From NCBI GenBank assembly GCA_013215385.1, contig JABSOY010000028.1:1-38017 (forward strand): a stretch of DNA of 38,017 nt. The letters run 5' to 3'. Position numbers and translations under genes: made by a program. The notes under the pieces are model-generated. The model saw only the letters and a list, made by a program, of their open reading frames with translations. It searched no databases and was not told the DNA's origin. Below, in pieces: positions 21,325-36,881 of the stretch (its first letter is position 1; each line of letters starts with the position of its first letter). This DNA is from Colwellia sp. (lineage in GTDB: Bacteria; Pseudomonadota; Gammaproteobacteria; Enterobacterales; Alteromonadaceae).

Positions 21325-21388
21325 ATTTTGCGAACCTGCTTTAAAGTTAATCTCGGTGTAAACACCTAGATAAGATAAAAACTATTTT

Positions 21389-21403
21389 GCAAGCTAAGTG
21401 CCA
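21389..21403 (-). promoter_or_regulatory. Sigma-54 promoter of nirBD
   Basis: On the minus strand TGGCACTTAGCTTGC matches the sigma-54 consensus TGGCAC-N5-TTGC exactly. Transcription should start near 21377, leaving a leader of about 53 bases. That is short for a NasR/NasT-type attenuator. Confidence 0.88.
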
Positions 21404-21487
21404 GTCTTGTTAATTCTTTTGTTTCAATAGGTTATGTTATTATTGGTTGTCAGGGGAGTTTAAAGTGCACTAGAGTGAATAACTTAA

Positions 21488-21504
21488 TGCACTGCTCTAG
21501 TGCG
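21488..21504. promoter_or_regulatory. NtrC-like enhancer site of nirBD
   Basis: TGCACT-GCTCT-AGTGCG has the spacing of the E. coli glnA NtrC site (TGCACC-N5-GGTGC). It lies about 110-127 bp upstream of the predicted start. A further half site AGTGCACT is at 21464-21471. Confidence 0.75.
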
Positions 21505-21533
21505 TGAGTGCATTAAGTTAAGTCTTGTTGAGA

Positions 21534-21953
21534 TTAACCGACTTGTGGTTTTTCAGTGCGTGGTCGCCATTGCCACCATTGTTGTTCGCCGTCTTTAATA
21601 TTGTTTGTTATGCCATCGGCTGTTTTTTGTGCTTTGGTTTGATAAATATCCCAAGTAATTAAATAATCAGGATCGGTGGTTTTTACGTTTTCAATACTAG
21701 TATGAAAGTCACCTTTAGGCGCATTAAACCAACAAGAAGTATTTGCCGGTAAAATAAATTCTGCTTCTTTATTTTTGGTATTGTTTGCTGAATTTAGTGT
21801 TAATAAGTTTAGCTTAATGCCCATCTCTTCATCAACAGATGTTACCGTGCCGGCGAGTAATGTTTGTTTTAGCTGTACTCCATTAACATCAAAGTAAGTT
21901 AAGCCAATCAAGCATCTTTTTTGTAGAGTATCGTTAAGTGTTTTTATTGTCAT
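21534..21953 (-). CDS. Unknown protein of the nasA operon
   Basis: The 139-residue protein belongs to no family I can name. It has no signal peptide, membrane helix or Cys cluster. The first half is strand-rich (RCLIGLTYFDVNGVQLKQTLLAGTVTSV, then EMGIKLNLLTL), like a small barrel; the C-terminus is Trp-rich (EQQWWQWRPR). It is the third gene after nasA and the Fe-S/DmsC gene (100-bp gap) on the minus strand, ahead of the nirB promoter, so a role in nitrate assimilation (assembly, chaperone or regulation) is likely by context only. I use the ATG at 21953; an in-frame ATG at 21983 adds ten residues. Confidence 0.7.
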   Translation of the reverse strand: MTIKTLNDTLQKRCLIGLTYFDVNGVQLKQTLLAGTVTSVDEEMGIKLNLLTLNSANNTKNKEAEFILPANTSCWFNAPKGDFHTSIENVKTTDPDYLITWDIYQTKAQKTADGITNNIKDGEQQWWQWRPRTEKPQVG

Positions 21954-22083
21954 AATGAATATTCTCGGTGATTGCTCCTTCATTTCTCTAATTTCTTACA
22001 TCCATGTAAGAATCTTCTTAAAGTTATTAACCCAGCTTTTAAGTCTTATAAGTACTGGGTGGGCTCACTTAATGGACTTGATA

Positions 22084-24132: not shown

Positions 24133-24193
24133 AATTGATGACTCATGTTAGCGTTATTCACTATTTCTTCAGAGGTATGGCTAATAACTGTGA

Positions 24194-26428
24194 CTAATAG
24201 GTGCGACGTTCGACGTTTAATTTCGCCGCTTCTGCTTGGTCTACATGCTCAATACGTACCGAGCATTGTTTAAACGCTGGCTGGCGAGAATGCGGGTCGA
24301 GCAAACCGAGCGTTAAACGATTTACACAGTCGTGATAATGAAAAGGCACAAACACCATATTGCGTGGTACACGCTGAGTTAACTGTACTAGTACTACGGC
24401 GTCGCCTCTGCGGCTGGTTAAACGGACATAACTTTGGTGAGCAATGCCTAAATCGGCCGCGGCATCAGGGTTCATTTCCATATAAGCGGTAGGGCTAAAT
24501 TTATTACAATTACCTATTTTTCCTGTCCGAGTACGGGTATGAAAATGTTCAACCACGCGGCCACTGTTCAACCAAAATGGATATTCACCACAAGGTTGTT
24601 CATTGTTGTTATAAAATTTAATTGCTATTAAATTGGCTTTGCCCGATTTTGTTGGGAAGACTCCGTCGCTATATAAACGTTGAGTCCCTTTTAAACTTGC
24701 CGATGCAGGTAATTGGTCATCTTCTTCACGACTTTCTTCCTCACGATAGGGCCACTGGATTCCACGGGCTTTAATAATTTTTTCGTAGCTCATACCGGAA
24801 ATATCTAAAGTACGAGGGCGACCATTATGAGTGCCTTTTGAAAGTTCTTTCATTTCATTAAATGCACCTTCAGGCTCATCAGGAAACTTCATTGTTTTGC
24901 TATTTTCAAAACGTTTTGCCATTTGGTTAAAAATCCAAAAGTCTGGTTTTGAATTAGCATAAGGGGGTAATACGTTATCAATTAAATTAACACGGCGTTC
25001 AGTATTGGTATGGCAACCTTGCTTTTCTGCCCATACCGAAGCGGGCAAATAAACATGAGAATATTGGTTGGTTTCAACATCTTCATAAACGTCTTGCACG
25101 ACGAGGAACTCAAGTTTTTCTAACATTTTACGTATGCGGGCGGTATTTGGCATAGAGGTCATTGGATTGGTGGCAACTAACCATAAGCCTTTAATCTCAC
25201 CCGTTTCAATGGCAGGGAAAATATCGGTTTGGGCAAGGCCACGTTTTTTTGGTAAAAAATTAACATCAATGCCCCAAAAGTCAGCAATTTCTTGGCGTTC
25301 ATCTTCGTTTTCTAAATAACGATAACCGGGTAAACCTGAGCAAGACGACCATTCACGAGTACCCATCGCGTTACATTGTCCAGTGATAGATAAACTCGTG
25401 CCGCCAGGTATACCGATATTTCCGGTAATTAAATTAAGGTTATTAATATTAGCAACACCGTCTGAGCCGTGTGTTGATTGATTAATACCCATAGTCCAAA
25501 TACTCATCGCTGATGGCGCTTTTGCGTAAATGCGCGCGACATTACGAATGGTGTCTTCATCGATACCACAAATATGTTGAGCTGTTTTTGGATCGTAATC
25601 TTGTACTAGCGCTTTTACTTCATCGAAACCTTGGGTACTGGCGTCGATATATACTTGATCTTGCAAGCCTTCATTAATAATGACGAACATCATGGCGTTA
25701 ATTAATACGCAGTCGGTACCGGGAGTGATAGGTAAATGAATATCAGCAAATTGCGCGAACATAGTGACACGAGGATCAACCACAATGAGCGGAAACTTTC
25801 GTTTTTCCAATGCTTCTTTTAAACGCCAGTAAATAATGGGGTGTTGCTCAGGTAGGTTTGAACCAAAGGCCATTAAACAATGGGTATGTTCAAAGTCTTC
25901 ATAACAACCTGGCGGGCCGTCTAAGCCAAAAGTGCGCTTATAACCACTGACCGCCGATGCCATGCAAAGTGTGGTATTGCCATCGTAATTGTTGGTACCA
26001 ATACAGCCGCGGGTGAGTTTTCCTAAGGTATAAAACTCTTCAGTAACTAACTGGCCGGTGGATATAACCGCGAAGGCGTCTTTACCGTACTTTTCTTGAA
26101 TTTCTTTAATTTTGCTGGCGGTGGTATCTAGGGCATTATCCCATGTGGTTTTCTCAAGCTTTTCAAAGTGTTTGTCGCGTATTAATGGCTCTGTGCCACG
26201 ACCTGGGCTTTCAAATAGCTCATGTTCAAGTAGCCCTTTAATACACAATTTTCCGCGGTTAACATCGGCACCCGCATGGCCACGCGAGGTAACAATTTTT
26301 TTATCTTCACTCAAACCTATTTCAATAGAGCAACCGGTTGAGCAATAGTTACAGGTAGTATATTTCCACTCTTTAACTTGTTTACTGGGAATAGTAATGG
26401 GTTTTCTGTTTTTACGACCAAATAACAT
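24194..26428 (-). CDS. nasA: Assimilatory nitrate reductase catalytic subunit NasA
   Basis: The 744-residue cytoplasmic molybdopterin enzyme reduces nitrate to nitrite. The N-terminal [4Fe-4S] site is C26-x2-C29-x3-C33...C62 (TCNYCSTGC, GKLCIKG), and the predicted Mo-ligand Cys155 is in TTLCMASAVSG, as in NapA/NasA. The C-terminal MoCo domain contains GRVVEHFHTRTRTGK. It lacks a Tat signal and the C-terminal [2Fe-2S] domain of Klebsiella NasA, so electrons must come from a partner; the Fe-S/DmsC fusion downstream is the obvious one. It is driven by the sigma-54 promoter at 26478-26492. Confidence 0.93.
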   Translation of the reverse strand: MLFGRKNRKPITIPSKQVKEWKYTTCNYCSTGCSIEIGLSEDKKIVTSRGHAGADVNRGKLCIKGLLEHELFESPGRGTEPLIRDKHFEKLEKTTWDNALDTTASKIKEIQEKYGKDAFAVISTGQLVTEEFYTLGKLTRGCIGTNNYDGNTTLCMASAVSGYKRTFGLDGPPGCYEDFEHTHCLMAFGSNLPEQHPIIYWRLKEALEKRKFPLIVVDPRVTMFAQFADIHLPITPGTDCVLINAMMFVIINEGLQDQVYIDASTQGFDEVKALVQDYDPKTAQHICGIDEDTIRNVARIYAKAPSAMSIWTMGINQSTHGSDGVANINNLNLITGNIGIPGGTSLSITGQCNAMGTREWSSCSGLPGYRYLENEDERQEIADFWGIDVNFLPKKRGLAQTDIFPAIETGEIKGLWLVATNPMTSMPNTARIRKMLEKLEFLVVQDVYEDVETNQYSHVYLPASVWAEKQGCHTNTERRVNLIDNVLPPYANSKPDFWIFNQMAKRFENSKTMKFPDEPEGAFNEMKELSKGTHNGRPRTLDISGMSYEKIIKARGIQWPYREEESREEDDQLPASASLKGTQRLYSDGVFPTKSGKANLIAIKFYNNNEQPCGEYPFWLNSGRVVEHFHTRTRTGKIGNCNKFSPTAYMEMNPDAAADLGIAHQSYVRLTSRRGDAVVLVQLTQRVPRNMVFVPFHYHDCVNRLTLGLLDPHSRQPAFKQCSVRIEHVDQAEAAKLNVERRTY

Positions 26429-26477
26429 GCACAGATCCTAAATAATTTATTGCTAATAATTCTTTATTTAGAGTAGA

Positions 26478-26492
26478 GCAGATACTGTGCCA
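26478..26492 (-). promoter_or_regulatory. Sigma-54 promoter of nasA
   Basis: On the minus strand TGGCACAGTATCTGC: the -24 element is perfect and the -12 element is CTGC instead of TTGC, with correct spacing. The expected start is near 26466, about 38 bases before nasA. Confidence 0.82.
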
Positions 26493-26563
26493 GATAATAT
26501 TTACTTTTAAATCATGTTGTTATATGTTTTTGGATGGTGGGTTTTGTGCTTTTAAAGTGCTTG

Positions 26564-26580
26564 TGCGCTTTATTGGTGCG
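26564..26580. promoter_or_regulatory. NtrC-like enhancer site of nasA
   Basis: TGCGCT-TTATT-GGTGCG has the same 6-5-6 layout as the sites before nirB and narK. A weaker one, TGTGCT-TTTAA-AGTGCT, lies next to it at 26545-26561. Distance to the predicted start is about 98-114 bp. Confidence 0.7.
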
Positions 26581-26660
26581 TTTCGGCTTTGCATTTATGC
26601 TTTAGGTTAAATTTTTGCTAACCTGATGGTATTTTCAAAAACTCGCACTTTAAATGGACA

Positions 26661-27464
26661 TCAATCTAACTTTTCGGAGATTTTAGATACTTTTTTATTT
26701 TGACGATATAGTAATGGTTGCTTTAAAACGCCTATAAACGATTGTTGAGCAGGCTTTCGAAAATATTCTAACCCGTAAGTTATCGGTTGCATTACATTGT
26801 TTGGCTGGGTGAACGTGCCAAAGAGCCTATCCCAAAGTGTAAAGATCATTCCATAATTGCTATTAGTGTAGGTTTTGTCAGCTGAGTGATGAATTCTGTG
26901 TATCTTTGGTGTCACCAATATATAAGCTAAATAATTATCGAGTTTGGCGTTTATTTTGATATTGCTATGGTGCCACATTTGAATGATAGCGGAGACTCCG
27001 CCAAATATAACTAATACGCTAAAATCTATTTCTATAAGCCAAACGAAGCTCGACATCAAGCTCCACGTTAGCATTAACTCAAAAGGGTGGTGCCTAAAAT
27101 TTGTTGATATATCTATATTTAAGTCGGAATGATGAACACAATGACATCGCCATAAAAGATGATAATAATGCATTGTGCGATGTAACAAATAATAAAATAA
27201 ATCTAATAATAGAAACAGACTTAGCAAGATAAATAAGTCTTTATTTGCGAATAAGGGTGAAAGTAGTTCGGTATTGATATTATCCGAGGAACTTAAACTC
27301 GATATGAAATTGAGTGAAGCTGTTATTGCGAAAGAGATGAGTAACAAGGAAAAATTTATTACCCATCTGTGTTGGATAGTTGCTAACGATTTGTCAGGAG
27401 ATATATTTTCCCACAAGAGGAATACTGCCAATGATAGCCAAATTATATCTGTACCTGCTAACAC
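26661..27464 (-). CDS. Sterol desaturase/fatty-acid hydroxylase family membrane protein
   Basis: The 267-residue integral membrane di-iron enzyme carries the eight-His set of this superfamily: HRTMH (HX3H), HCVHH (HX2HH) and HRIHH (HX2HH), plus the extra FRHHPFE. Membrane helices lie at about 5-20, 35-55, 75-92 and 130-160. Members hydroxylate or desaturate lipids (sterols, fatty acids, carotenoids); the substrate here is unknown. The start is GTG at 27464, 8 bp after the PEP-CTERM gene, so both form one unit lying between the nasA promoter and the narK-kinase genes. It is not obviously related to nitrate use. Confidence 0.85.
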   Translation of the reverse strand: MLAGTDIIWLSLAVFLLWENISPDKSLATIQHRWVINFSLLLISFAITASLNFISSLSSSDNINTELLSPLFANKDLFILLSLFLLLDLFYYLLHRTMHYYHLLWRCHCVHHSDLNIDISTNFRHHPFELMLTWSLMSSFVWLIEIDFSVLVIFGGVSAIIQMWHHSNIKINAKLDNYLAYILVTPKIHRIHHSADKTYTNSNYGMIFTLWDRLFGTFTQPNNVMQPITYGLEYFRKPAQQSFIGVLKQPLLYRQNKKVSKISEKLD

Positions 27465-27472
27465 TTAGTTAG

Positions 27473-27652
27473 CTACTTGTTACGCTTTTTGATAATAAAA
27501 GCAATTGCGCCAGCGATCGCGAATAATGCAATAGCACTAGGTTCAGGTACCTGTGTAGAGTCTTGTGGTAGACCAGCAAATGCGCTGCTCATATTGGCTA
27601 AATATAAAGAGACTAGAGCGATTAATTGAATTTTTACGTTTTTAATTTTCAT
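27473..27652 (-). CDS. PEP-CTERM microprotein
   Basis: The 59-residue precursor consists of almost nothing but sorting signals. Residues 1 to about 25 form a signal peptide ending in SSAFA. About ten residues follow (GLPQDSTQ), and then a textbook PEP-CTERM tail: VPEPSAIALFAIAGAIAFIIKKRNK split as PEP motif, hydrophobic helix and basic end. Such proteins are processed by exosortase (EpsH/XrtA type) and are often linked to exopolysaccharide. The ATG at 27652 has AAGGA five bases upstream; the reading frame is open further upstream but without function. The residual mature peptide would be about ten residues. No exosortase is in the window. It is cotranscribed with the desaturase-like gene. Confidence 0.85.
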   Translation of the reverse strand: MKIKNVKIQLIALVSLYLANMSSAFAGLPQDSTQVPEPSAIALFAIAGAIAFIIKKRNK

Positions 27653-27829
27653 AATATTCCTTAAGTATTCTAGGAGTACATAGAAATGCATAGTTAGTAC
27701 CATAAATACAAGTGTCTATATTTTAATCGTTTTTAAACCTTGTATAGATAAAATCTTTATATTTGTAAAAATAACTGACAGCAAAAATTAGTATGATGAT
27801 GTTTATTGTAGACTCAGCTGACAAATAAT

Positions 27830-29662
27830 CTAGTTTGCTAAAACAATGACCAGCACAATAAATAATAGTGCCGATACGCCTTGCCAAAACTGCACCGGAT
27901 TGCGCTGCATAATAGGTTGGCTGTTATAGTCTGCAATGGCTGATAAATTGGGTTTGTTTAAATCGGCATTAAATTCTGAAAATGCGTGGTAACGAAGGCT
28001 AGGGTCTGCTTTAGTTGACTTTTCTAACGCTAAGTCTAACCAAAGAGGTAAGTCGCCACGAAATTGCTTAATACTACGATATTGCCACTGGGTATAATCG
28101 TTAAAGTAAACTTCAGCTCTGCGCATAGGTTTATAGGGTAATTCACCACATAACATCTCATAAGCAATAACACCTAAAGAAAATAAGTCACTTTGATGAT
28201 CCGCTTTAAGGCTTAATAGTGTTTCAGGAGCAATATAGTTCATGGTGCCCTGCGGTACGGTTTCGTTAATTGTATCGCAATTTTCGGCGAGCGAAGCGAT
28301 TAATACCGTGCCGTAATCAATCAACTTAATTTGCCCGTTATTGTCGATCATTATGTTGTCAGGTTTTAAATCACGATGCACCAACTCTAGGCGCTGAAAA
28401 GCGCGTAAGGCAAGGGTTATTTGTTGAATAATATTTCTAACTTGAGCAATGCTTGGTTGAGGGTTATCAAACATCCACTGGGATAATGTTTGGCCATTAA
28501 TGTACTCACACACATGATAAAGAAAAGGGCTGTTAACTTTCGCCGTTTTAATTTTCATGATGTGCTGATGACTTATTCGCTCTCCGAGCCAAGCTTCGCG
28601 CATGAAACCTTGTAAGTACAAAGGATCGTCTGAAAAATTTTCAGAGGGCACTTTGAGTACCGATAAAGTTTTATTGTTTTTAGTCTCGTTATCAGCAAAT
28701 TCTTCGACTAAGTCCTCATCTACACTTTCAACTAAGTAAAGATGTGAACGTGTGCTGGCGTGAATAATTTTACAGACTTTATAACCATCTAATTTCATGC
28801 CTATTGATAATGCTGGCGGTATCGTTTTACTTAATAAGTCTCGCTCAATTTCAATAAGTTCTCGATTTGGCGTGCTATTAATGTAAACCAATAAACAACT
28901 GACATTATCGTCACTGCCATGCTCTATTGCTAACTGGGTTAATTGTTGGCTAAGTTGTTCTAATGCTAGATTTGTTGGCGGGCTGTCAGCTTGTCTCTTG
29001 AGTTTCAGTAATGCGGCGGAAATTTGTTTATCGGTCAAATATTCATGTAGACCATCACAGGTTAATAGGTAAATGTCGCCAGCTTGAATATCAACTTGAT
29101 GTACATCTACTTTTAAACGACTATCTGCGCCAAGTGCTCGGGTGAGTACCGTATGTCCATGACTTTGTTTTCGATTATGATCATGGGTAATAGCGCTGAT
29201 TTTATTTTGGCGAAATAAGCTGATACGCGTATCACCGACATGAAAAATATAACCCGTGCTAGATTTTACAATCAGCGCTGAAAAAGTAGTTAACCACTCG
29301 GCGCTTTGTTTATTCATGCCATCACTTTGTGAATACAACCATTGGTTTAAACTGGTCAGTACTTTGGCCGCTGACTTTTGCGTTGACCAAGTTTCAGGTG
29401 TTGCGTAATAGTCATTAATAAACTGAGTAACACTGAGTTGTGCCGCTTCTGCAGCTTTACTGGCGCTGGAAACTCCATCGGCAATAGCGGCAATAATACC
29501 TTTGCTAACAATGTCACTTTTTTGTGGGATAAGCGCGGCAAAAGCATCTTGGTTGTGTGCTTTTTTACCCGCACAACTGTAACCACCAAAGCTCAGTGAA
29601 AGTTTATTTTTACTTGGCTTTGGTGACGTTACCGTTTTATCTTGTGATGACTTAACTGACAT
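27830..29662 (-). CDS. Bifunctional PP2C phosphatase and Ser/Thr protein kinase, membrane-anchored
   Basis: The 610-residue protein has an N-terminal PP2C phosphatase (about 25-265: HNQDAF, IADGVSSASKAAEAA, TCDGLHEYLTD, GSDDNVSCLLVY) and a C-terminal eukaryote-like kinase (about 290-570: LSVLKVP lysine, HRDLKPDN near 425, IDYG in place of DFG, GTMNYIAPE, SDLFSLGVIAYEMLCGELPY). One membrane helix closes the protein (FWQGVSALLFIVLVIVLAN). All catalytic acidic residues seem present, so both activities are plausible. The ATG at 29662 overlaps the narK end by 11 bp, so the gene is coupled to the nitrate transporter and under the same sigma-54 promoter. Its substrate is unknown; a nitrate-assimilation protein is the natural guess. 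Confidence 0.9.
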   Translation of the reverse strand: MSVKSSQDKTVTSPKPSKNKLSLSFGGYSCAGKKAHNQDAFAALIPQKSDIVSKGIIAAIADGVSSASKAAEAAQLSVTQFINDYYATPETWSTQKSAAKVLTSLNQWLYSQSDGMNKQSAEWLTTFSALIVKSSTGYIFHVGDTRISLFRQNKISAITHDHNRKQSHGHTVLTRALGADSRLKVDVHQVDIQAGDIYLLTCDGLHEYLTDKQISAALLKLKRQADSPPTNLALEQLSQQLTQLAIEHGSDDNVSCLLVYINSTPNRELIEIERDLLSKTIPPALSIGMKLDGYKVCKIIHASTRSHLYLVESVDEDLVEEFADNETKNNKTLSVLKVPSENFSDDPLYLQGFMREAWLGERISHQHIMKIKTAKVNSPFLYHVCEYINGQTLSQWMFDNPQPSIAQVRNIIQQITLALRAFQRLELVHRDLKPDNIMIDNNGQIKLIDYGTVLIASLAENCDTINETVPQGTMNYIAPETLLSLKADHQSDLFSLGVIAYEMLCGELPYKPMRRAEVYFNDYTQWQYRSIKQFRGDLPLWLDLALEKSTKADPSLRYHAFSEFNADLNKPNLSAIADYNSQPIMQRNPVQFWQGVSALLFIVLVIVLAN

Positions 29663-31142
29663 GAATGAGCTCAACCGTACCGTCTTCGTTTATTTCGGTC
29701 ATAGCGCCTTTGGGCTCTTCCATTAATAGCAATACCATAAACCCTAACACGGCGGTTGCTGAAATCACTAGGAAGAAGATTTGGTAGCTCACTAATGAAA
29801 GTACCGTTAAATATACCACTGCACCAACGTTGCCATAAGCTCCGGTCATACCGGCAATTTGTCCGGTTAATCGGCGTTTAATTAACGGCACGGCGGCAAA
29901 TACTGCCCCTTCACCGGCTTGCACGAAAAATGAACATGCCATTGCAGCAATTACCGCTAATGCTAAAGGCCATGAACTATCAATCGCCGACATAGTAAAA
30001 TAACCTATCGCTAGACCTGCAGTTAAAATAAGGAGCGTTTTTTTACGACCATATTTGTCACTTAACCAGCCGCCGCCTGGGCGAGACATTAAATTCATAA
30101 AGGCATAAAGAGACGCTAATAAACCCGCGTAAACCATATCTAAACTAAATACATCAGCAAAAAATAGCGGTAGCATTGAAATAACCGCAAGTTCAGAGCC
30201 AAATGTCGCGAAGTATAAAATGTTCAATACCGCGACTTGTTTGAATTTATATTGATGCTCAACCAGTACTGGTGTGGTAAAAATATGTTTGTTTACTTTA
30301 TAAGTTTGCGCGACTTCAATAATAAATAAAACCACTAAAGAAAGATAAGCGATTAGCGCGATATTATCGCCAAATAAATTGACTCCCTTAGGTGACAATT
30401 TCCAGGTTAATAATGCCAAGGCACCATACATAGGTAACTTCATGACTAATAACAGATAGAAGTCGCTAATACTGGTAACTTCCATTGCTCCGGTTTGTTT
30501 TGGCTTGAAATAGGTTGAACCCTTTGGCGTATCGTCAATATTGAAATACCAAATAAAACTAAAAACAAGGCTCATTAATCCTGTTAGTGCAATTGCATAG
30601 CGCCAGCCATTTTCGCCGCCACTCACGTAGCTAAAGTAAAGCGCGATTGCCGGTAAAGACATTGCTGCGGCAGCTGAACCAAAATTACCCCAGCCACCGT
30701 AAATACCTTCAGCGGTACCCAATTCGTTAGCCGGAAACCATTCACTGACCAGACGAATGCCAATCACAAAACCAGCACCAATAAAACCTAATAAAAAACG
30801 GGCAAGGGCGGCTTGTTCAAAGTTATCAGCCAGGGCAAACATAAAGCAGGGTATGCTACAAACTGCCAGTAATATCGAGAAGGTTAAGCGAGGACCATAC
30901 TTGTCGGTAACCATGCCGATAATCACCCTCGCTGGAATGGTGAGCGCCACATTGAGAATAAGTAAGGTTTTTATTTCACTTGCCGACAAACCTAAACTGA
31001 CTGCTATTACCGCAAGTAATGGCGCATGGTTAAACCAAACCATGAAAGTGATGAAAAACGCCATCCAACTTAAATGTAATGTTTTCATTTTTCCTGTAAA
31101 CGACAACAGTTTAATACCCGTTGATGTATTCTTTACGCTCAT
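29652..31142 (-). CDS. narK: Nitrate/nitrite transporter of the NarK/NasA MFS family
   Basis: The 496-residue protein is an MFS carrier with about twelve membrane helices. The typical NNP-family opening FTGKMKTLHLSWMAFFITFMVWFN is followed by the first nitrate signature around GFIGAGFVIGIRLVSEWFP...GTAEGIYGGWGNFGSA and the second in GQIAGMTGAYGNVGAVVYL, with the two conserved Arg of the substrate site. MSRPGGGWLSDKYGRKK is the MFS A-motif. It imports nitrate for NasA. The start at 31142 (GGAG nine bases upstream) is preferred; ATGs at 31148 and 31157 are alternatives. The open frame up to 31196 crosses the sigma-54 promoter and cannot be coding from that transcript. Confidence 0.92.
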   Translation of the reverse strand: MSVKNTSTGIKLLSFTGKMKTLHLSWMAFFITFMVWFNHAPLLAVIAVSLGLSASEIKTLLILNVALTIPARVIIGMVTDKYGPRLTFSILLAVCSIPCFMFALADNFEQAALARFLLGFIGAGFVIGIRLVSEWFPANELGTAEGIYGGWGNFGSAAAAMSLPAIALYFSYVSGGENGWRYAIALTGLMSLVFSFIWYFNIDDTPKGSTYFKPKQTGAMEVTSISDFYLLLVMKLPMYGALALLTWKLSPKGVNLFGDNIALIAYLSLVVLFIIEVAQTYKVNKHIFTTPVLVEHQYKFKQVAVLNILYFATFGSELAVISMLPLFFADVFSLDMVYAGLLASLYAFMNLMSRPGGGWLSDKYGRKKTLLILTAGLAIGYFTMSAIDSSWPLALAVIAAMACSFFVQAGEGAVFAAVPLIKRRLTGQIAGMTGAYGNVGAVVYLTVLSLVSYQIFFLVISATAVLGFMVLLLMEEPKGAMTEINEDGTVELIHVS

Positions 31143-31188
31143 AACCATAAGCTCCATAAAGTTAAAATTTTTAATTAACTGAACTAGA

Positions 31189-31203
31189 GCAAACACAGTG
31201 CCA
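31189..31203 (-). promoter_or_regulatory. Sigma-54 promoter of narK-kinase
   Basis: On the minus strand TGGCACTGTGTTTGC matches TGGCAC-N5-TTGC exactly. Start of transcription is expected near 31177, which fixes the narK start downstream of that point. Confidence 0.88.
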
Positions 31204-31475: not shown

Positions 31476-31688
31476 ATGCTTGATATAAAGCAGTTTGACC
31501 AACTTAAGAAAACAAGCGCAAAGTCATTTAATGATCAAAAAGCCTTGATCAAAAAAGTGATGGCTGGGCGACAAATGAAATGTGATACCTGCGGAACGAT
31601 TATTAAATTAGTAGTACCCGAAGATAAAGGGTCTCCAGGTCTTTATTGTGACAAAGGCTGTACTGATATCTCTTTAGATTTTATTTAA
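31476..31688 (+). CDS. Small zinc-finger-like protein
   Basis: The 70-residue protein has a basic helical first half and then a possible zinc site: C36-x2-C39 and C58-x3-C62 (KCDTCG ... YCDKGC). The function is unknown; I do not recognise the family beyond this layout. ATG at 31476 with AGGCAG upstream. Its 3' end overlaps the convergent lysR gene end by 15 bp. Confidence 0.72.
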   Translation: MLDIKQFDQLKKTSAKSFNDQKALIKKVMAGRQMKCDTCGTIIKLVVPEDKGSPGLYCDKGCTDISLDFI

Positions 31689-32540
31689 TTGCTCACTACT
31701 CAGCTCAGTTGAAGCGCAACAAATTTCTTTTAGCTCAGTAATTATTGGCGAGTCTTCTTTATTACGTTTAAACGCTAAACCAATATCTTTAACTAACGTG
31801 TTGTTTGCTATTGGCACGAGCGACAGTTGGTCAGCTTCCAATATTTCTTGCCAATCAGGCAGTAACGCTGCGCCGATACCAGCACAAACCAATTGCCATG
31901 CATATTCTATGGTTTTAATATTAGCGCGTGGTTGAAACCTTACTGATTCATCGGCCATAAGTACTTTTAATTTATCTAGCGCGTCGCATGGCGATCTATT
32001 GATAAAAGGCATGCCTTCGAGTTCAGTAATATCAATAGATGACTGCTGAGCGATAGACCAACTCTTCGGCACAGCAAGTTGATAACTGTCTTGCCAAATA
32101 GGAATAAAACGTTCATTGCTCGCCACTGAATGGGCGACGACAACTCGTGCATCACAGGGCTCTTCTGGATCAACTAATGTCAATTCTACATTCGCTATTT
32201 TTTCAGTGATATTCTTCAATAACGAACACATCCTTTGTGCCCCTAAAGAACGCATTATGCCTAATCTTAAAATTACTGGTGCAGGCGAGCCGGAAAAAAG
32301 GTGGTTAATTGACTTGGCATTATCGGCAATTTCCTTCGCTTTCGGGTACAGCTTGTCGGCAGCATCTGTAGGTAATACGCCGCGAGCATGACGAATAAAT
32401 AAAATAATATCTAAATCTGATTCAAGCTGTTTAATAGCGGTGGTAATCGAAGGCTGAGAAACAAAACAAGCACGGGCAGCTGCACTAATACTACCTTGCT
32501 CATAGACAGACTGAAAATATTTTAGTGAGCGAAGTTCCAT
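31674..32540 (-). CDS. LysR-family transcriptional regulator
   Basis: The 288-residue regulator has an N-terminal winged helix-turn-helix (MELRSLKYFQSVYEQGSISAAARACFVSQPSITTAIKQLE) and a C-terminal effector-binding domain. I start at the ATG at 32540, which has GGAA six bases upstream and gives the canonical N-terminus; an ATG at 32552 adds four residues. It is divergent from pcaIJ-aminotransferase-pcaF, the classical arrangement for a LysR activator and its target, with a palindromic site in the gap. The inducer may be an intermediate of the beta-ketoadipate-type pathway, by analogy with CatM/PcaQ, but the sequence does not prove it. Confidence 0.92.
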   Translation of the reverse strand: MELRSLKYFQSVYEQGSISAAARACFVSQPSITTAIKQLESDLDIILFIRHARGVLPTDAADKLYPKAKEIADNAKSINHLFSGSPAPVILRLGIMRSLGAQRMCSLLKNITEKIANVELTLVDPEEPCDARVVVAHSVASNERFIPIWQDSYQLAVPKSWSIAQQSSIDITELEGMPFINRSPCDALDKLKVLMADESVRFQPRANIKTIEYAWQLVCAGIGAALLPDWQEILEADQLSLVPIANNTLVKDIGLAFKRNKEDSPIITELKEICCASTELSSEQLNKI

Positions 32541-32616
32541 GAGTATTTCCATTTAGGTTTTAAAAGCTAGGTTTATTATATTTGATATATGCTTTGTGAA
32601 TGCTAATCGAGATCAA

Positions 32617-32635
32617 GTATAGTTTATATCTATAC
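32617..32635. promoter_or_regulatory. Candidate LysR-type operator
   Basis: GTATAG-TTTATAT-CTATAC is a perfect 19-bp palindrome containing the LysR pattern T-N11-A. It lies 77 bp upstream of lysR and 136 bp upstream of pcaI, in the divergent gap. Confidence 0.6.
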
Positions 32636-32770
32636 CTTTCATAAACAAATTATATTTTTCAATGTTAAAGACAAACAGTAAAGTTAATTAATATAAATCA
32701 ATAACGTCACCTTGAATGAATTTCAGGCTCTTGCGTTAAGATGACCAGTTAAAATAAAAAGAAGGTAACG

Positions 32771-33481
32771 ATGATAAATAAATTTAGCACCACTGCCGCA
32801 GATGCTGTCGCCGATATTTTTGATGGGGCGACCGTGATGATCGGCGGTTTCGGTGAAGCGGGTAGCCCGATTGAGTTGATCCATGCACTTATTGATCACG
32901 GTGCTAAAAACCTTACCGTTGTTAACAATAATACCGGCAGTGGTCATGTTGGCTTAGCGGCATTAATTGAAAATGGCCAAGTAGGAAAAATGATTTGCTC
33001 ATTTCCTCGTACCGCCAATTCAACGGTTTTTCCTGACTTATATCGCGCAGGTAAAATTGAGCTAGAACTTGTGCCGCAAGGCACGCTTGCCGAACGTATT
33101 CGAGCTGGTGGCGCTGGCATTCCAGCATTTTTCACCGCGACTTCGGTAGGAACGCCTTTGGCTGATGGCAAAGAGCATCGTAACTTTGATGACCGTGATT
33201 ATGTGATGGAGCTAAGCTTAACGGCTGACTTTGCCCTTATCAAAGCGAAAGAAGCAGATCGTTATGGCAACTTAACCTACAACAAAACAGCACGGAATTT
33301 TGCACCGATTATGGCAATGGCAGCAAAGACCACCATAGTGCAAACGAGTTACTGTGTGGCGGCTGGCGATATTGATCCCGAAACCGTAGCTACCCCGGGC
33401 ATTTTTGTTGACCGCATAATTCATATTGAAAAGCCGTTACAAGAATCTAACTTAAATGCACAAGGGAGAACTTACCCATGA
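32771..33481 (+). CDS. pcaI: 3-oxoadipate CoA-transferase subunit A (PcaI-type)
   Basis: The 236-residue alpha subunit of a succinyl-CoA:3-oxoacid CoA-transferase. It resembles Pseudomonas PcaI along its length: MINKF, VMIGGFGEAGSPIELI, ICSFPRTANSTVFPDLYRAG, IELELVPQGTLAERIRAGG, and ADRYGNLTYNKTARNFAPIMA. With the B subunit it would turn 3-oxoadipate into 3-oxoadipyl-CoA. ScoA (acetoacetate) is close in sequence, but the adjacent PcaF-like thiolase favours 3-oxoadipate. GAAGG precedes the ATG. It overlaps pcaJ by 4 bp (ATGA). Confidence 0.88.
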   Translation: MINKFSTTAADAVADIFDGATVMIGGFGEAGSPIELIHALIDHGAKNLTVVNNNTGSGHVGLAALIENGQVGKMICSFPRTANSTVFPDLYRAGKIELELVPQGTLAERIRAGGAGIPAFFTATSVGTPLADGKEHRNFDDRDYVMELSLTADFALIKAKEADRYGNLTYNKTARNFAPIMAMAAKTTIVQTSYCVAAGDIDPETVATPGIFVDRIIHIEKPLQESNLNAQGRTYP

Positions 33482-34158
33482 GCTTAGAAAAAAATACAGA
33501 AGCCGTTGGCTGGACACGCGACCAAATGGCTGAGCGTGCCGCACTTGATATTCCTGATGGTTCATACGTTAATTTGGGCATTGGCATTCCTGAAAAAGTC
33601 GCTCGATATGTACCACAAGGGCGTGAATTTATTTATCACACCGAAAATGGCTTATTAGGCATGGGGCCGACACCAGAGATTGGTGAAGAAGATGCGGACT
33701 TAATTAATGCCGGCAAAAAACCGGTAACGGCTATTGCTGGGGCAGCCTATTTTCATCATGCAGACAGCTTTGCAATGATCCGCGGACAGCATATCGATGT
33801 TTGTGTCTTAGGGGCAATGCAAGTGGCACAAAATGGCGACTTAGCTAATTGGTCAACTGGCGCGCCAGACGCTATTCCTGCGGTTGGCGGTGCGATGGAT
33901 CTCGTCGCTGGCGTTAAAACCATTTATGTTATCACCCAACACACCACTAAAAATGGTATTGCCAAACTGATTGAAGCATGTAGTTACCCGTTAACAGGTC
34001 AAAGTGTTGTTAGCCGAATTTATACCGACTTATGTGTTATTGAAGTGACCAGTAAAGGTTTTGAATTGGTTGAATTAGCCCCTAATGTAGCGTTCGACAC
34101 TGTTCAAGAACGTACTGGTGCACCGCTTATTGATTCACGTAAATTTTCGGAGAAGTAG
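33478..34158 (+). CDS. pcaJ: 3-oxoadipate CoA-transferase subunit B (PcaJ-type)
   Basis: The 226-residue beta subunit carries the catalytic Glu in YHTENGLLGMGP. YVNLGIGIPEKVARYV, GEEDADLINAGKKPVT, FHHADSFAMIRGQHIDVCVLGAMQV and GDLANWSTG match PcaJ. It is translationally coupled to pcaI, and the aminotransferase gene starts 2 bp after its stop. As for pcaI, the natural acceptor is inferred from the neighbouring thiolase. Confidence 0.88.
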   Translation: MSLEKNTEAVGWTRDQMAERAALDIPDGSYVNLGIGIPEKVARYVPQGREFIYHTENGLLGMGPTPEIGEEDADLINAGKKPVTAIAGAAYFHHADSFAMIRGQHIDVCVLGAMQVAQNGDLANWSTGAPDAIPAVGGAMDLVAGVKTIYVITQHTTKNGIAKLIEACSYPLTGQSVVSRIYTDLCVIEVTSKGFELVELAPNVAFDTVQERTGAPLIDSRKFSEK

Positions 34159-34160
34159 TT

Positions 34161-35504
34161 ATGTCTACAAACCCAAAAGAATTGAGTAAAAGTGCGGTAT
34201 TATTTTCTCGCGCAAAAAAAGTATTACCGGGCGGTGTTAGTCGCAATACCATTTTTAAATTGCCACATCCTGATTATGTTGAAAAAGGTCAGGGCTGTTA
34301 TGTTACCGATATTGACGGAGTTACTCGCATAGATTTTGCCAATAATATGGCGTCACTTATTCATGGCCACGCTAACCCAGAAATTACCCAAGCGATTATC
34401 GAGCAAGTACAAAAAGGTACTGCCTTTACTATGGCCACCGAAATTGAAATTGAGTATGCCGAATTATTATGTGAACGTGTGCCGGGCTTTGAAAAAATTC
34501 GTTTTGTAAATTCTGGCACGGAAGCGGTAATGGCGATGATTAAAGCGGCGCGTGCTTTTACCGGTAAAGAAAAAATAGCTAAAGTTGAAGGTGCCTATCA
34601 CGGCGCTTATGATTACGCCGAAGTTAGCCAAACCGCAGCCCCTAAAAATTGGGGAGATGAAGACCAACCGGCTAGTGTTCCTGTAGCAAACGGTACACCA
34701 GAGGGCGCTTTAAATGACGTTATTATAATACCTTATAACAATGTTGAAAAAGCCTTAGCCATTTTAAATCAGCACAAAGGTGAATTAGCGGGAATACTGA
34801 TTGACCCCGTTTCTCATCGTGTTGGTATGGTGCCAGCGAGTGAAGCTTTTGTTGAAGCACTTTATCAATGGACACGAGCAAACGACGCGTTATTGATGTT
34901 TGATGAAGTGATCACCTTCCGCGTTAATTATGCTGGCGCTCAGCAAAACTATAAAGTGGCTCCTGATTTAACCGCGATAGGAAAAATGATTGGCGGTGGC
35001 TTTCCTGTTGGTGCATTTGCAGGCCGAAGTGATGTAATGGAGGTGCTTGACCCAACTCAGCCGAAAGTTTTATTGCCCCATTCAGGTACTTTTTCTGCCA
35101 ACCCTGTCACTATGACCGCAGGACTTACCGCGATGCGTTTGTTTGATGAAAAAGCGGTAGATTATGTTAATGCTTTAGGCGACTTAGCCCGTAAAGAAAT
35201 TACTCATGCCATTGAAAAAACCGGTATTAAAGCTTGCGTTACGGGAGCGGGTTCGATGTTTCGTATTCACTTAAAAGCACAAGCACCAAACAACTATCGT
35301 CAAGCATATGCTAACGAAGACGAAGCGAAAGGCTTGAAGCTTTTACTCTCGCATTTGTTTGAACAAGGACTGATGATGATCAATACTTGCTCGGCGATGT
35401 TATCAACGGCAATGACAGAAAAAGAAATTATGATTTTAGTGGAGCATTTAACCTCGGGCTTTGAAAAAGTCATCGAGCAATATCCTTCACTTAAGAAAAG
35501 CTAA
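34161..35504 (+). CDS. Class III aminotransferase (glutamate-1-semialdehyde aminomutase-like group)
   Basis: The 447-residue PLP enzyme has VLPGGVSRNT (21-30), VNSGTEAVMAMIKAARA (NSGTE 117-121), YHG (146-148), DEV (248-250) and the Schiff-base Lys275 in AIGKMIGGGFPVGAFAG. This is the HemL-like branch that includes beta-amino-acid aminotransferases such as the Variovorax beta-phenylalanine enzyme, whose PGANSR..., NSGTEAN and LGKYIGGGMSFGAFGG are similar. It is embedded in the pcaIJ-pcaF operon with GGAG upstream and a 2-bp gap. By context it may deaminate an amino acid to 3-oxoadipate or a related 3-oxo acid. A role in haem synthesis is unlikely here. Confidence 0.88.
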   Translation: MSTNPKELSKSAVLFSRAKKVLPGGVSRNTIFKLPHPDYVEKGQGCYVTDIDGVTRIDFANNMASLIHGHANPEITQAIIEQVQKGTAFTMATEIEIEYAELLCERVPGFEKIRFVNSGTEAVMAMIKAARAFTGKEKIAKVEGAYHGAYDYAEVSQTAAPKNWGDEDQPASVPVANGTPEGALNDVIIIPYNNVEKALAILNQHKGELAGILIDPVSHRVGMVPASEAFVEALYQWTRANDALLMFDEVITFRVNYAGAQQNYKVAPDLTAIGKMIGGGFPVGAFAGRSDVMEVLDPTQPKVLLPHSGTFSANPVTMTAGLTAMRLFDEKAVDYVNALGDLARKEITHAIEKTGIKACVTGAGSMFRIHLKAQAPNNYRQAYANEDEAKGLKLLLSHLFEQGLMMINTCSAMLSTAMTEKEIMILVEHLTSGFEKVIEQYPSLKKS

Positions 35505-35506
35505 AG

Positions 35507-35554
35507 AAAACTCAAGTAAAATAAAACTCAAGCAAAATAAAATTAAGCTAAAAC
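35507..35554 (+). repeat. Short tandem repeat before pcaF
   Basis: Two units AAAACTCAAG[TC]AAAAT of 16 bp (35507-35522, 35523-35538) and a third degenerate one (AAAATTAAGCTAAAAC) fill most of the 72-bp gap between the aminotransferase and pcaF. It is probably slippage-generated leader sequence. Confidence 0.6.
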
Positions 35555-35576
35555 AAACTCAAAAGAGAAAAAATGA

Positions 35577-36881
35577 ATGAGTGACTTTTCAACTGAACAA
35601 ATAAGCACTTCACAAAGTGAAAGTAATGAGATAAATGAAGTCTTTATTTGTGACGCAATTAGAACACCGGTTGGCCGTTTCGGTGGTTCACTAGCAACCA
35701 TACGTGCTGACGATTTAGCGGCATTGCCCTTAAAAGCATTAATGGACAGAAATCCCGATTTAGATTTTAGCCAAGTAGACGATGTTATTTTAGGGTGTGC
35801 TAACCAAGCAGGTGAAGACAATCGTAACATTGCGCGTATGGCGACTTTGTTAGCCGGTTTACCGTATCAAGTTCCAGCAACAACGTTGAACCGTTTATGT
35901 GGTTCAGGTTTGAATGCGGTCGGTATTGCCATGCAGGCGATTAAATCTGGTGAGGCTGAAATGATTATTGCTGGCGGCGCTGAGAGTATGACTCGTGCAC
36001 CTTTTGTAATGGGCAAAGCAGAAAGTAACTTTTCACGAACTCAAGAAATGTTTGATACCACCATGGGCTGGCGTTTTGTTAATAAAGCACTCGATAGTGC
36101 TTATGGTACGGAAACCATGCCACAAACCGCTGAAAATCTTAGCGAAGAATTTAACATTAGTCGTGAAGACCAAGACAAGTTTGCTTTTGCCAGTCAACAA
36201 AAAGCAGCCAATGCACAACAAGCGGGTTTATTTGACGAAGAAATAGTGCCGGTAAGTATTGCTCAGCATAAAAAAGAGCCGATAATTTTTTCAAAAGATG
36301 AACACCTAAGGTTAACCACTTTAGAAAAAATGTCAGCGTTAAAACCTTTTGTTCATGCCAAAGGCTGTATAACGGCTGGTAATGCTTCGGGTATTAATGA
36401 CGGTGCTGCGGCAATTTTACTTGCTTCAAGTCAATCGGTGAAAAAAAACAACTTAACTCCTATTGCTAAAGTACTAGGTATGGCAGTTGCCGGAGTTCCA
36501 CCTCGTATTATGGGCATTGGTCCAGTACCGGCAACGAAAAAGTTATTAAAGCGATTAAATTTGACATTAGCTGACATGGATATAATCGAGCTAAACGAAG
36601 CGTTTGCCGCACAAGCATTAGCCTGTATTCGTGAATTAGGTTTGCAAGATGATGACCCGCGTATTAACCCACAAGGTGGCGCTATTGCTTTAGGGCATCC
36701 GCTTGGCATGAGTGGTGCGCGTTTAATTACCTCTGCAGCTCGTCAATTACAACGCACCAACAAACGTTACGCCTTGTGTACTATGTGTATCGGAGTCGGG
36801 CAGGGCATTGCTTTGATTATTGAAAGCGTGATTAACCCCGTTGGGAATGACAAGTGTGATCTGACTAAGTCAAACACTTAA
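35577..36881 (+). CDS. pcaF: 3-oxoadipyl-CoA thiolase (PcaF-type)
   Basis: The 434-residue thiolase would split 3-oxoadipyl-CoA with CoA to succinyl-CoA and acetyl-CoA. Catalytic Cys108 lies in TTLNRLCGSGLNAVG, the His in GGAIALGHPLGMSGAR and the second Cys in CTMCIGVGQG. PcaF-specific stretches such as VFICDAIRTPVGRFGG, DVILGCANQAGEDNRNIARM, WRFVNKALDSAYGTETMPQTAENL, VLGMAVAGVPPRIMGIGPVPA are all recognisable, which separates it from AtoB/FadA. There are about 18 extra Ser/Thr/Gln residues before the conserved start and a short extra tail. Last gene of the operon, ending inside its terminator. Confidence 0.9.
   Translation: MSDFSTEQISTSQSESNEINEVFICDAIRTPVGRFGGSLATIRADDLAALPLKALMDRNPDLDFSQVDDVILGCANQAGEDNRNIARMATLLAGLPYQVPATTLNRLCGSGLNAVGIAMQAIKSGEAEMIIAGGAESMTRAPFVMGKAESNFSRTQEMFDTTMGWRFVNKALDSAYGTETMPQTAENLSEEFNISREDQDKFAFASQQKAANAQQAGLFDEEIVPVSIAQHKKEPIIFSKDEHLRLTTLEKMSALKPFVHAKGCITAGNASGINDGAAAILLASSQSVKKNNLTPIAKVLGMAVAGVPPRIMGIGPVPATKKLLKRLNLTLADMDIIELNEAFAAQALACIRELGLQDDDPRINPQGGAIALGHPLGMSGARLITSAARQLQRTNKRYALCTMCIGVGQGIALIIESVINPVGNDKCDLTKSNT

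What the first reader, a model, noticed from the sequence alone, without database searches (positions are those of the whole stretch)
32771..36881. Class III aminotransferase embedded in a pcaIJ-pcaF operon: candidate amino-acid route into 3-oxoadipate
The order is pcaI-pcaJ-aminotransferase-pcaF with a 4-bp overlap and a 2-bp gap, under a divergent LysR gene. No ring-cleavage or muconate genes are present. The aminotransferase belongs to the HemL-like branch that contains beta-amino-acid transaminases. A simple reading is: 3-aminoadipate (or a similar beta-amino acid) to 3-oxoadipate, then its CoA ester, then succinyl-CoA and acetyl-CoA. I know of no described pathway of this kind.
Basis: partly seen in the sequence, partly recalled or inferred. 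Interest (0 to 1): 0.7.

Follow-up and report, generated by a model that had tools for sequence, protein, structure and literature searches.

The report
Candidate lysine breakdown route via 3-aminoadipate
A four-gene bacterial operon, together with a separate unnamed radical-SAM enzyme gene, looks like an undescribed way to break down 2-aminoadipate (a product of lysine): the amino group is moved one carbon along, then removed, and the product feeds into central metabolism.

Summary
The operon is real: LysR, then pcaI-pcaJ-aminotransferase(AT)-pcaF. The AT and 16 close relatives form one clade (100/99). All 12 genomes found through the AT carry one of two uncharacterised KamA-type radical-SAM families, KamX (8) or AM2 (4), none both. 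The window's genome, a Colwellia relative, has KamX on another contig. In Mesorhizobium and kin KamX lies beside fdxA and the AT, in several with L-piperideine-6-carboxylate dehydrogenase, which yields 2-aminoadipate in lysine catabolism. AM2 heads the pcaIJ-AT-pcaF operon in Photobacterium and Pseudoalteromonas. In three of five Mesorhizobium loci pcaIJ is replaced by the CoA-transferase pair found in protocatechuate operons elsewhere. KamX and AM2 have Arg where lysine 2,3-aminomutase has Asp293. Proposed route: 2-aminoadipate, 3-aminoadipate, 3-oxoadipate, 3-oxoadipyl-CoA, succinyl-CoA plus acetyl-CoA. My searches found no paper describing it. Main gaps: no recognised maker of 2-aminoadipate in the window's genome or the AM2 genomes, and no activity shown.

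The parts
31674..32552 (-). Divergent LysR-type regulator of the operon
   Evidence: Homologue (59-82% id) divergent from the operon in Colwellia DT_21, Photobacterium obscurum, P. denitrificans and Pseudoalteromonas NBT06-2; in the last three AM2 is the first operon gene.
32553..32770 (.). 218-bp divergent intergenic region, expected to hold the operon promoter and LysR sites
   Evidence: for its length; the role is inference, no promoter scan was made.
32771..33481 (+). pcaI, 3-oxoacid (3-oxoadipate) CoA-transferase subunit A
   Evidence: TIGR02429 350.8 bits, cut-off 128.5; a broad subfamily, so 3-oxoadipate specificity rests on context.
33478..34158 (+). pcaJ, CoA-transferase subunit B
   Evidence: TIGR02428 299.4 bits, cut-off 243.55; overlaps pcaI by 4 bp.
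34161..35504 (+). Class III (HemL-like) aminotransferase, predicted 3-aminoadipate:2-oxo acid transaminase
   Evidence: Nearest solved chain 6K8H (402 bits), the S. thermophilus beta-transaminase (PMC10589169 passages). R28 aligns with its proposed carboxylate-binding R36, K275 with K282. One clade with KamX- and AM2-associated ATs, 100/99.
35577..36881 (+). pcaF, 3-oxoadipyl-CoA thiolase
   Evidence: TIGR02430 equivalog 683.2 bits, cut-off 597; nearest solved chain 6pca, beta-ketoadipyl-CoA thiolase, 572 bits.

Best explanation
The operon is the lower part of a catabolic route for L-2-aminoadipate, an intermediate of lysine and pipecolate breakdown. Step 1 (gene elsewhere in the genome: KamX, G000:C37:473590-475023; in other hosts AM2): a PLP- and iron-sulfur-dependent radical-SAM aminomutase moves the amino group from C2 to C3, giving 3-aminoadipate. 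Step 2: the window's aminotransferase passes that amino group to a 2-oxo acid, giving 3-oxoadipate. Step 3: PcaIJ (or a CatIJ-type CoA-transferase in some Mesorhizobium) makes 3-oxoadipyl-CoA from succinyl-CoA. Step 4: PcaF cleaves it to succinyl-CoA and acetyl-CoA. Shown by sequence: gene identities, conserved neighbourhoods, co-occurrence, the clade of the aminotransferases, cofactor motifs. Inferred: all substrates and the direction of flow.
For: (1) Co-occurrence: the 12 genomes found through the AT (58% identity or more) have KamX (8, at 64% or more) or AM2 (4, at 70% or more), none both; KamX is rare (3 of 59 relatives; 8 of 394 genomes of the M. sophorae family). (2) Linkage: KamX-fdxA-AT in all five Mesorhizobium loci read and in G549, G441, G617, G713; KamX beside pcaI in G427 and beside divergent pcaI-pcaJ in G733; AM2-pcaI-pcaJ-AT-pcaF in Photobacterium and P. 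denitrificans, AM2-pcaI-pcaJ in NBT06-2. (3) Substrate side: Pcd (NF050084) follows KamX by 26 bp in Mariniblastus (766 bits in the genome, cut-off 730), and lies in the KamX-AT stretch of G549, G441, G617 (799, 821, 820 bits), M. sophorae (811) and M. carmichaelinearum (815); the two Mesorhizobium stretches also hold HglS (740 over 550 in the first, 93% identical in the second) and a saccharopine-dehydrogenase-like gene. (4) Product side: PcaF passes its equivalog; three of five Mesorhizobium loci use instead the CoA-transferase pair found between pcaG and pcaF in protocatechuate operons (81/79% id to Chelatococcus). (5) Interchange: in the AT tree KamX and AM2 hosts are interleaved, and one LysR family stands divergent to KamX in Colwellia and to AM2 in Litorilituus: two dissimilar enzymes for one step. 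(6) Active site: both have CxxxCxxC, a Lys aligned with the PLP lysine of KamA proteins, and Arg in place of Asp293 of lysine 2,3-aminomutase (KamX).
Against: No enzyme has been assayed. In the window's own genome KamX and the AT are on different contigs, and neither Pcd over its cut-off nor the LysDH-like protein is found; nor in G005 or the four AM2 genomes, so the source of 2-aminoadipate there is unknown. The LysDH-like protein is also missing from the KamX hosts G429 and G433. G003, same genus, has Pcd without KamX or this AT, and G004 has KamX without this AT and without Pcd. Clusters with HglS could send 2-aminoadipate through 2-oxoadipate instead. None of 16 reference proteins other than KamX lies near KamX in 20 kb of G433 or 7.9 kb of G775; M. 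sophorae has no CoA-transferase beside the AT, one M. waimense copy has broken ones, and M. carmichaelinearum has only a fragment of pcaF after them. The alignments of KamX and AM2 to the solved aminomutase are weak, Arg at that position is also seen in a Mesorhizobium KamA-family protein of unknown substrate and in AM2-like paralogues, and both AlphaFold models were too poor to use (pLDDT 54 and 44).
Confidence: 0.7

Rival explanations
1. The route serves glutamate: the aminomutase makes beta-glutamate (3-aminoglutarate, a known compatible solute, recalled), the AT makes 3-oxoglutarate, and CoA transfer plus thiolysis gives malonyl-CoA and acetyl-CoA.
For: Arg at the Asp293 position suits any acidic side chain; the AT-pcaF of G427 lies beside an NADP glutamate dehydrogenase; several hosts have marine genus names or records.
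Against: KamX lies with genes for making 2-aminoadipate; PcaF passes the 3-oxoadipyl-CoA thiolase equivalog and the alternative CoA-transferase is of the protocatechuate type; KamX and AM2 score far below the glutamate 2,3-aminomutase model (83 and 54 of 650 bits).
Confidence: 0.1
2. The operon takes a ready-made beta-amino acid from outside (3-aminoadipate or another) and the aminomutases serve something else.
For: KamX and AT are unlinked in the window's genome; 6K8H, the nearest solved relative, accepts several beta-amino acids (PMC10589169 passages).
Against: 12 of 12 co-occurrence and repeated physical linkage of AT or pcaIJ with either aminomutase.
Confidence: 0.08
3. Beta-lysine route: lysine to beta-lysine, acetylation, transamination and thiolysis (N6-acetyl-beta-lysine pathway, recalled).
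For: Same reaction order; KamA-family enzymes.
Against: Asp293, recalled as binder of the lysine amino group, is Arg in KamX and AM2 while EpmB keeps Asp; scores against AblA are 71 and 60 of 525 bits; the only other KamA-family protein found in the window's genome is EpmB (494 bits, cut-off 369); linkage is to Pcd, which oxidises the epsilon end.
Confidence: 0.04
4. An ordinary aromatic beta-ketoadipate operon with an aminotransferase inserted by chance.
For: pcaI, pcaJ, pcaF are the classical lower pathway; Litorilituus has a PcaR-type regulator upstream (252.8 bits on a truncated gene, cut-off 284.75); the three Mesorhizobium genomes do have strong intradiol dioxygenase matches, up to 182 bits.
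Against: No intradiol dioxygenase domain in 6 of 12 AT genomes; the two of the window's genome are 212-215 aa proteins with signal-like N-termini whose matched parts score far below every ring-cleavage cut-off; the I-J-AT-F order is kept across families.
Confidence: 0.05

Closest known systems
Lower beta-ketoadipate pathway (PcaIJ or CatIJ, PcaF)
   Same: Same CoA-transferase and thiolase families; PcaF passes its equivalog; 3-oxoadipate as the predicted node.
   Different: 3-oxoadipate would come from an amino acid by aminomutase and transaminase, not from a ring.
Lysine 2,3-aminomutase (AblA/KamA, 2a5h) and glutamate 2,3-aminomutase
   Same: KamA-like by sequence, CxxxCxxC, a Lys aligned with the PLP lysine.
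   Different: Two separate families far below all curated cut-offs; no Pfam match for KamX at E 0.01, sub-threshold Radical_SAM for AM2; Arg instead of Asp293.
Lysine catabolism through 2-aminoadipate, 2-oxoadipate and HglS (P. putida)
   Same: Shared upper part; Pcd and HglS genes lie near KamX in two Mesorhizobium loci.
   Different: 2-aminoadipate would be isomerised instead of transaminated at C2.
Aerobic N6-acetyl-beta-lysine degradation (recalled)
   Same: 2,3-aminomutase, beta-transaminase, CoA transfer and thiolysis in the same order.
   Different: Different substrate and no acetylation; products succinyl-CoA and acetyl-CoA.
Beta-transaminase of Sphaerobacter thermophilus (6K8H)
   Same: Nearest solved relative of the AT; proposed carboxylate-binding Arg and PLP Lys conserved.
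   Different: The window's AT is in a separate clade with its own invariant residues, such as H219 and W237.

Membership tests
3-oxoadipyl-CoA thiolase PcaF | Passes equivalog TIGR02430 | tested here: met
   683.2 bits, cut-off 597
PcaIJ 3-oxoadipate CoA-transferase | Pass pcaI_scoA and pcaJ_scoB subfamily models | tested here: met
   350.8 over 128.5 and 299.4 over 243.55
PcaIJ 3-oxoadipate CoA-transferase | Acts on 3-oxoadipate rather than acetoacetate | not testable with these tools
   The subfamily models are named for both; nearest solved chains of PcaI are succinyl-CoA:3-ketoacid transferases; context only
Glutamate-1-semialdehyde aminomutase (HemL) | Passes equivalog TIGR00713 | tested here: not met
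   354.6 bits, cut-off 527.3; the genome's HemL is another gene on contig C38 (632.6 bits)
Beta-amino-acid transaminase (6K8H type) | Carboxylate-binding Arg36 and PLP Lys282 | tested here: met
   R28 and K275 in the alignment; roles from PMC10589169 passages
Beta-amino-acid transaminase (6K8H type) | Activity on beta-amino acids | not testable with these tools
   Needs assay
Lysine 2,3-aminomutase (KamX and AM2, outside the window) | CxxxCxxC cluster motif and PLP lysine | tested here: met
   Alignment; invariant; the role of the aligned Lys is recalled
Lysine 2,3-aminomutase (KamX and AM2, outside the window) | Asp293 that binds the lysine side-chain amine (role recalled) | tested here: not met
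   Arg353 in KamX, Arg424 in AM2 (KamX)
Lysine 2,3-aminomutase (KamX and AM2, outside the window) | Passes AblA equivalog TIGR03820 | tested here: not met
   70.7 and 60.2 bits, cut-off 525.4
Glutamate 2,3-aminomutase | Passes equivalog TIGR04368 | tested here: not met
   82.7 and 54.2 bits, cut-off 650
Lysine catabolism through 2-aminoadipate | L-piperideine-6-carboxylate dehydrogenase in the genome | tested here: inconclusive
   Over cut-off in 6 of 12 AT genomes, all KamX hosts; not in the window's genome, G005 or the four AM2 genomes; over cut-off in 1 of 14 control genomes
Aromatic beta-ketoadipate pathway | Intradiol ring-cleavage dioxygenase in the genome | tested here: not met
   Window's genome: two PF00775 proteins whose matched parts reach at most 134 bits against cut-off 296 for protocatechuate beta and 84 against 126 for alpha; no PF00775 in 6 of 12 AT genomes, strong matches in the three Mesorhizobium

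The most novel reading that the evidence does not exclude
Bacteria of at least two phyla degrade lysine-derived 2-aminoadipate by a route that my searches did not find in print: a radical-SAM 2-aminoadipate 2,3-aminomutase, recruited from two separate KamA-like families (KamX and AM2), makes 3-aminoadipate, which a dedicated transaminase and the lower beta-ketoadipate pathway turn into succinyl-CoA and acetyl-CoA. This would link lysine and aromatic catabolism at 3-oxoadipate.
Probability: 0.65. Interest if true: 0.85.

Novelty: new variant of a known kind. Interest (0 to 1): 0.75.

Why it matters
If true it adds a route for 2-aminoadipate beside the 2-oxoadipate branch, a metabolite (3-aminoadipate) that my searches met in the held library only in a meteorite paper (listing), a new substrate for the 2,3-aminomutase reaction, and functions for two radical-SAM families that the curated libraries searched here do not name. 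It also warns that pcaIJF genes cannot be read as proof of aromatic catabolism, and offers enzymes of interest for turning lysine into C6 diacids.

Tried and rejected
Aromatic operon with a hitch-hiking aminotransferase: rejected on the intradiol dioxygenase survey and conserved order. Beta-lysine pathway: disfavoured. HemL duplicate: fails the equivalog. Five AT relatives under 50% identity on plasmids sit in varied neighbourhoods (hydantoinase, ectoine, acetolactate-synthase and other genes) and told nothing about this clade; 198 plasmid records matched in all, 40 were listed. AlphaFold models of AM2 (pLDDT 43.8) and KamX (54.3) were too poor for fold searches, so none was run. KamX on plasmids at E 1e-30 gave only the Mesorhizobium record already known. 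AM2 on plasmids gave 19 records under 60% identity, not followed. Papers: beta-glutamate 49 papers, 20 listed, none opened; the one beta-aminoadipic hit is a title in a reference list about lysine 6-aminotransferase (passage), where I take beta to be a misprint for alpha; the last searches found nothing relevant.

Rows dropped before counts: of 35 loci (found with two peptide patterns only, so other relatives may be missed), the 12 with 58% identity or more (11 genomes) were used, the 23 others, at most 43%, were not. G005 and G424 are taken as one genome because contig lengths and coordinates agree. The 12 AT genomes are the window's genome plus these 11. Of the relatives of 56% identity or more, L027 was not put in the tree, and L033 was dropped from its outgroup because its stretch holds a stop. 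The regional map used 16 reference proteins on 27 loci at E 1e-8.
Full report
What is there. The window is contig C22 of a 5.1-Mb genome; the nearest named match to the operon is Colwellia sp. DT_21. LysR (31674-32552, -) stands divergent to pcaI (32771-33481), pcaJ (33478-34158), a class III aminotransferase (34161-35504) and pcaF (35577-36881). Spacings are 218 bp, 4-bp overlap, 2 bp and 72 bp. PcaF passes the 3-oxoadipyl-CoA thiolase equivalog, PcaI and PcaJ pass broad 3-oxoacid CoA-transferase models, and the aminotransferase is HemL-like but fails the HemL model, which another gene of the genome passes. Its nearest solved chain is 6K8H, the beta-amino-acid transaminase of Sphaerobacter thermophilus (PMC10589169, passages seen); the Arg that paper proposes as carboxylate binder is R28 here, and the PLP lysine is K275.

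How rare it is. At E 1e-100 or better the AT occurs in 2 of 59 relatives, the window's genome and one congener, which has the whole five-gene block. At E 1e-95, 2 of 369 genomes drawn from the class match: the window's genome and G142, the latter at 40% identity. A scan of genome contigs with two peptide patterns found 35 related loci, 12 of them with 58% identity or more, from 11 genomes: Colwellia, two Pseudoalteromonas, Litorilituus, Photobacterium, an unnamed gammaproteobacterium, three Mesorhizobium species, Mariniblastus and another planctomycete. In a 28-row tree 17 such ATs (56% or more to the window's; L027 not put in) form one clade (100/99) apart from 6K8H, ForI, HemL and eight other rows.

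The missing partner. The best plasmid relative (62%, Mesorhizobium sp. 113-3-3) follows fdxA and a gene annotated as hypothetical, which is a KamA-family radical-SAM protein; I call it KamX. The window's genome has a 69% identical KamX on contig C37, divergent from its own GcvA-like LysR. In Photobacterium and P. denitrificans a second, dissimilar KamA-like protein (AM2, about 22% identical to KamX) is the first gene of the pcaI-pcaJ-AT-pcaF operon. Searching the 12 AT genomes: KamX at 64% or more in 8, AM2 at 70% or more in 4, both in none; remaining matches are other KamA-family proteins of 38% or less. In 7 of the 12 the aminomutase adjoins the AT or pcaI (G425, G427, G428, G430, G431, G432, G434); in 5 it does not (G000, G005, G426, G429, G433). 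In G427 KamX is followed by a pcaI cut by the contig end, whose protein is 183 of 189 residues identical to that of the AT contig but whose DNA differs, so it is a second copy or a strain variant. KamX is found in 3 of 59 relatives, so both AT genomes there have it (hypergeometric p = 0.0018, not corrected for kinship), and one KamX genome, G004, lacks this AT. In 394 genomes of the M. sophorae family KamX occurs in 8: the AT adjoins it in 5 (G431, G549, G441, G617, G713), divergent pcaI-pcaJ in G733, a LysDH-like gene 3 kb off in G660, and none of 16 reference proteins in 7.9 kb of G775.

What goes in. KamX and L-piperideine-6-carboxylate dehydrogenase (Pcd), which by its family forms 2-aminoadipate, are neighbours in Mariniblastus (26 bp; 766 bits, cut-off 730) and lie in one stretch in G549, G441, G617, M. 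sophorae and M. carmichaelinearum, all over the cut-off. The last two stretches also hold a saccharopine-dehydrogenase-like gene and HglS, of known lysine catabolism (for HglS see PMC7286885, abstract and passages). Pcd over cut-off is in 6 of 12 AT genomes, all KamX hosts, but not in the two Colwellia nor in the four AM2 hosts; it is also in G003, a congener without KamX or this AT. The LysDH-like protein is in 4 of these 12, G427 and the three Mesorhizobium.

What comes out. In 3 of 5 Mesorhizobium loci the place of PcaIJ is taken by another CoA-transferase pair; it is broken in L027, absent in L029, and in L030 followed by a fragment of pcaF only. Homologues 81 and 79% identical lie between pcaG and pcaF in the protocatechuate operon of Chelatococcus, and similar ones in Methylocella; in S. 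meliloti a homologue lies upstream of pcaF. Thus the AT pairs with two different 3-oxoadipate-type CoA-transferases. This is the strongest ground for 3-oxoadipate as its product. A full pcaF was not sought in the Mesorhizobium genomes.

One step, two enzymes. In the AT tree Colwellia (KamX) is sister to Pseudoalteromonas (AM2) with Litorilituus (AM2) outside, and the G427 bacterium (KamX) pairs with Photobacterium (AM2; 93/83, not starred). The LysR family that faces KamX in Colwellia faces AM2 in Litorilituus (56% id). Both enzymes keep CxxxCxxC and a Lys aligned with the PLP lysine of KamA proteins, and both carry Arg at the position of Asp293 of lysine 2,3-aminomutase, whereas EpmB keeps Asp. 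That Asp293 binds the lysine side chain, and which Lys binds PLP, are recalled, not from a call. Arg suits a side-chain carboxylate, but it also stands in a Mesorhizobium KamA-family protein of unknown substrate and in AM2-like paralogues. The alignments behind this are weak for KamX and for AM2 rest on MAFFT alone at this place.

Against the aromatic reading. Six of 12 AT genomes have no intradiol dioxygenase domain match at all; the window's genome has two short proteins with signal-like N-termini (by eye), whose matched parts are well under all curated cut-offs; the three Mesorhizobium have strong matches and so probably degrade aromatics as well. Extradiol and muconate genes were not searched genome-wide.

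What remains open. No assay. In Colwellia and the AM2 hosts no maker of 2-aminoadipate was recognised, so uptake or another enzyme must be assumed. KamX and AT are on separate contigs in the window's genome. Other acidic amino acids, chiefly glutamate, are not excluded. Literature: 3-aminoadipate 0 papers; 3-aminoadipic 1, a meteorite paper by the listing; aminomutase with 3-oxoadipate and transaminase 2, judged irrelevant from the listing; 2-aminoadipate with aminomutase and lysine 2, an aminotransferase review and a B6 database by the listing; further wordings none relevant. The library lacks most subscription journals.

Noticed in passing
18733-31196: Nitrate assimilation block on the minus strand: NirB, a NasA-like reductase (under its cut-off), a NarK transporter, and between them a 614-aa protein with a Ser/Thr kinase part.
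   Followed up: no
22084-24132: 682-aa protein with only a sub-cut-off DmsB-like iron-sulfur match, between nirB and the nitrate reductase.
   Followed up: no
2235-3440: Methionine gamma-lyase, just over its equivalog cut-off (552.3 of 549.7 bits).
   Followed up: no
L079, L084, L085: A third KamA-like family, 36-38% identical to AM2 (open frames 446-511 aa), in G142 and both Pseudoalteromonas; the G142 and G434 copies also have Arg at the Asp293 position, and the G142 copy matched no NCBIfam model at E 1e-40.
   Followed up: partly
L138:961-7391 (Tistrella mobilis pTM2): pcaI-pcaJ (70 and 68% identical to the window's) lie near a Pcd, a gene annotated DUF1338 and a LysR like the one facing KamX, without KamX or this AT in the stretch.
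   Followed up: partly
L027 (Mesorhizobium waimense): One of two copies of KamX-fdxA-AT in this genome, followed by broken CoA-transferase genes.
   Followed up: no
G004:C15:213742-215088 (L059): Same-genus genome with KamX (93% identical) but without this aminotransferase at E 1e-100.
   Followed up: partly
L141:5684-6331, L142:5544-6182: Two small intradiol-dioxygenase-like proteins with signal-like N-termini in the window's genome.
   Followed up: partly
L023:1-660: PcaR/PcaU-type regulator, truncated by the contig end, divergent from pcaI-pcaJ-AT-pcaF in Litorilituus.
   Followed up: no
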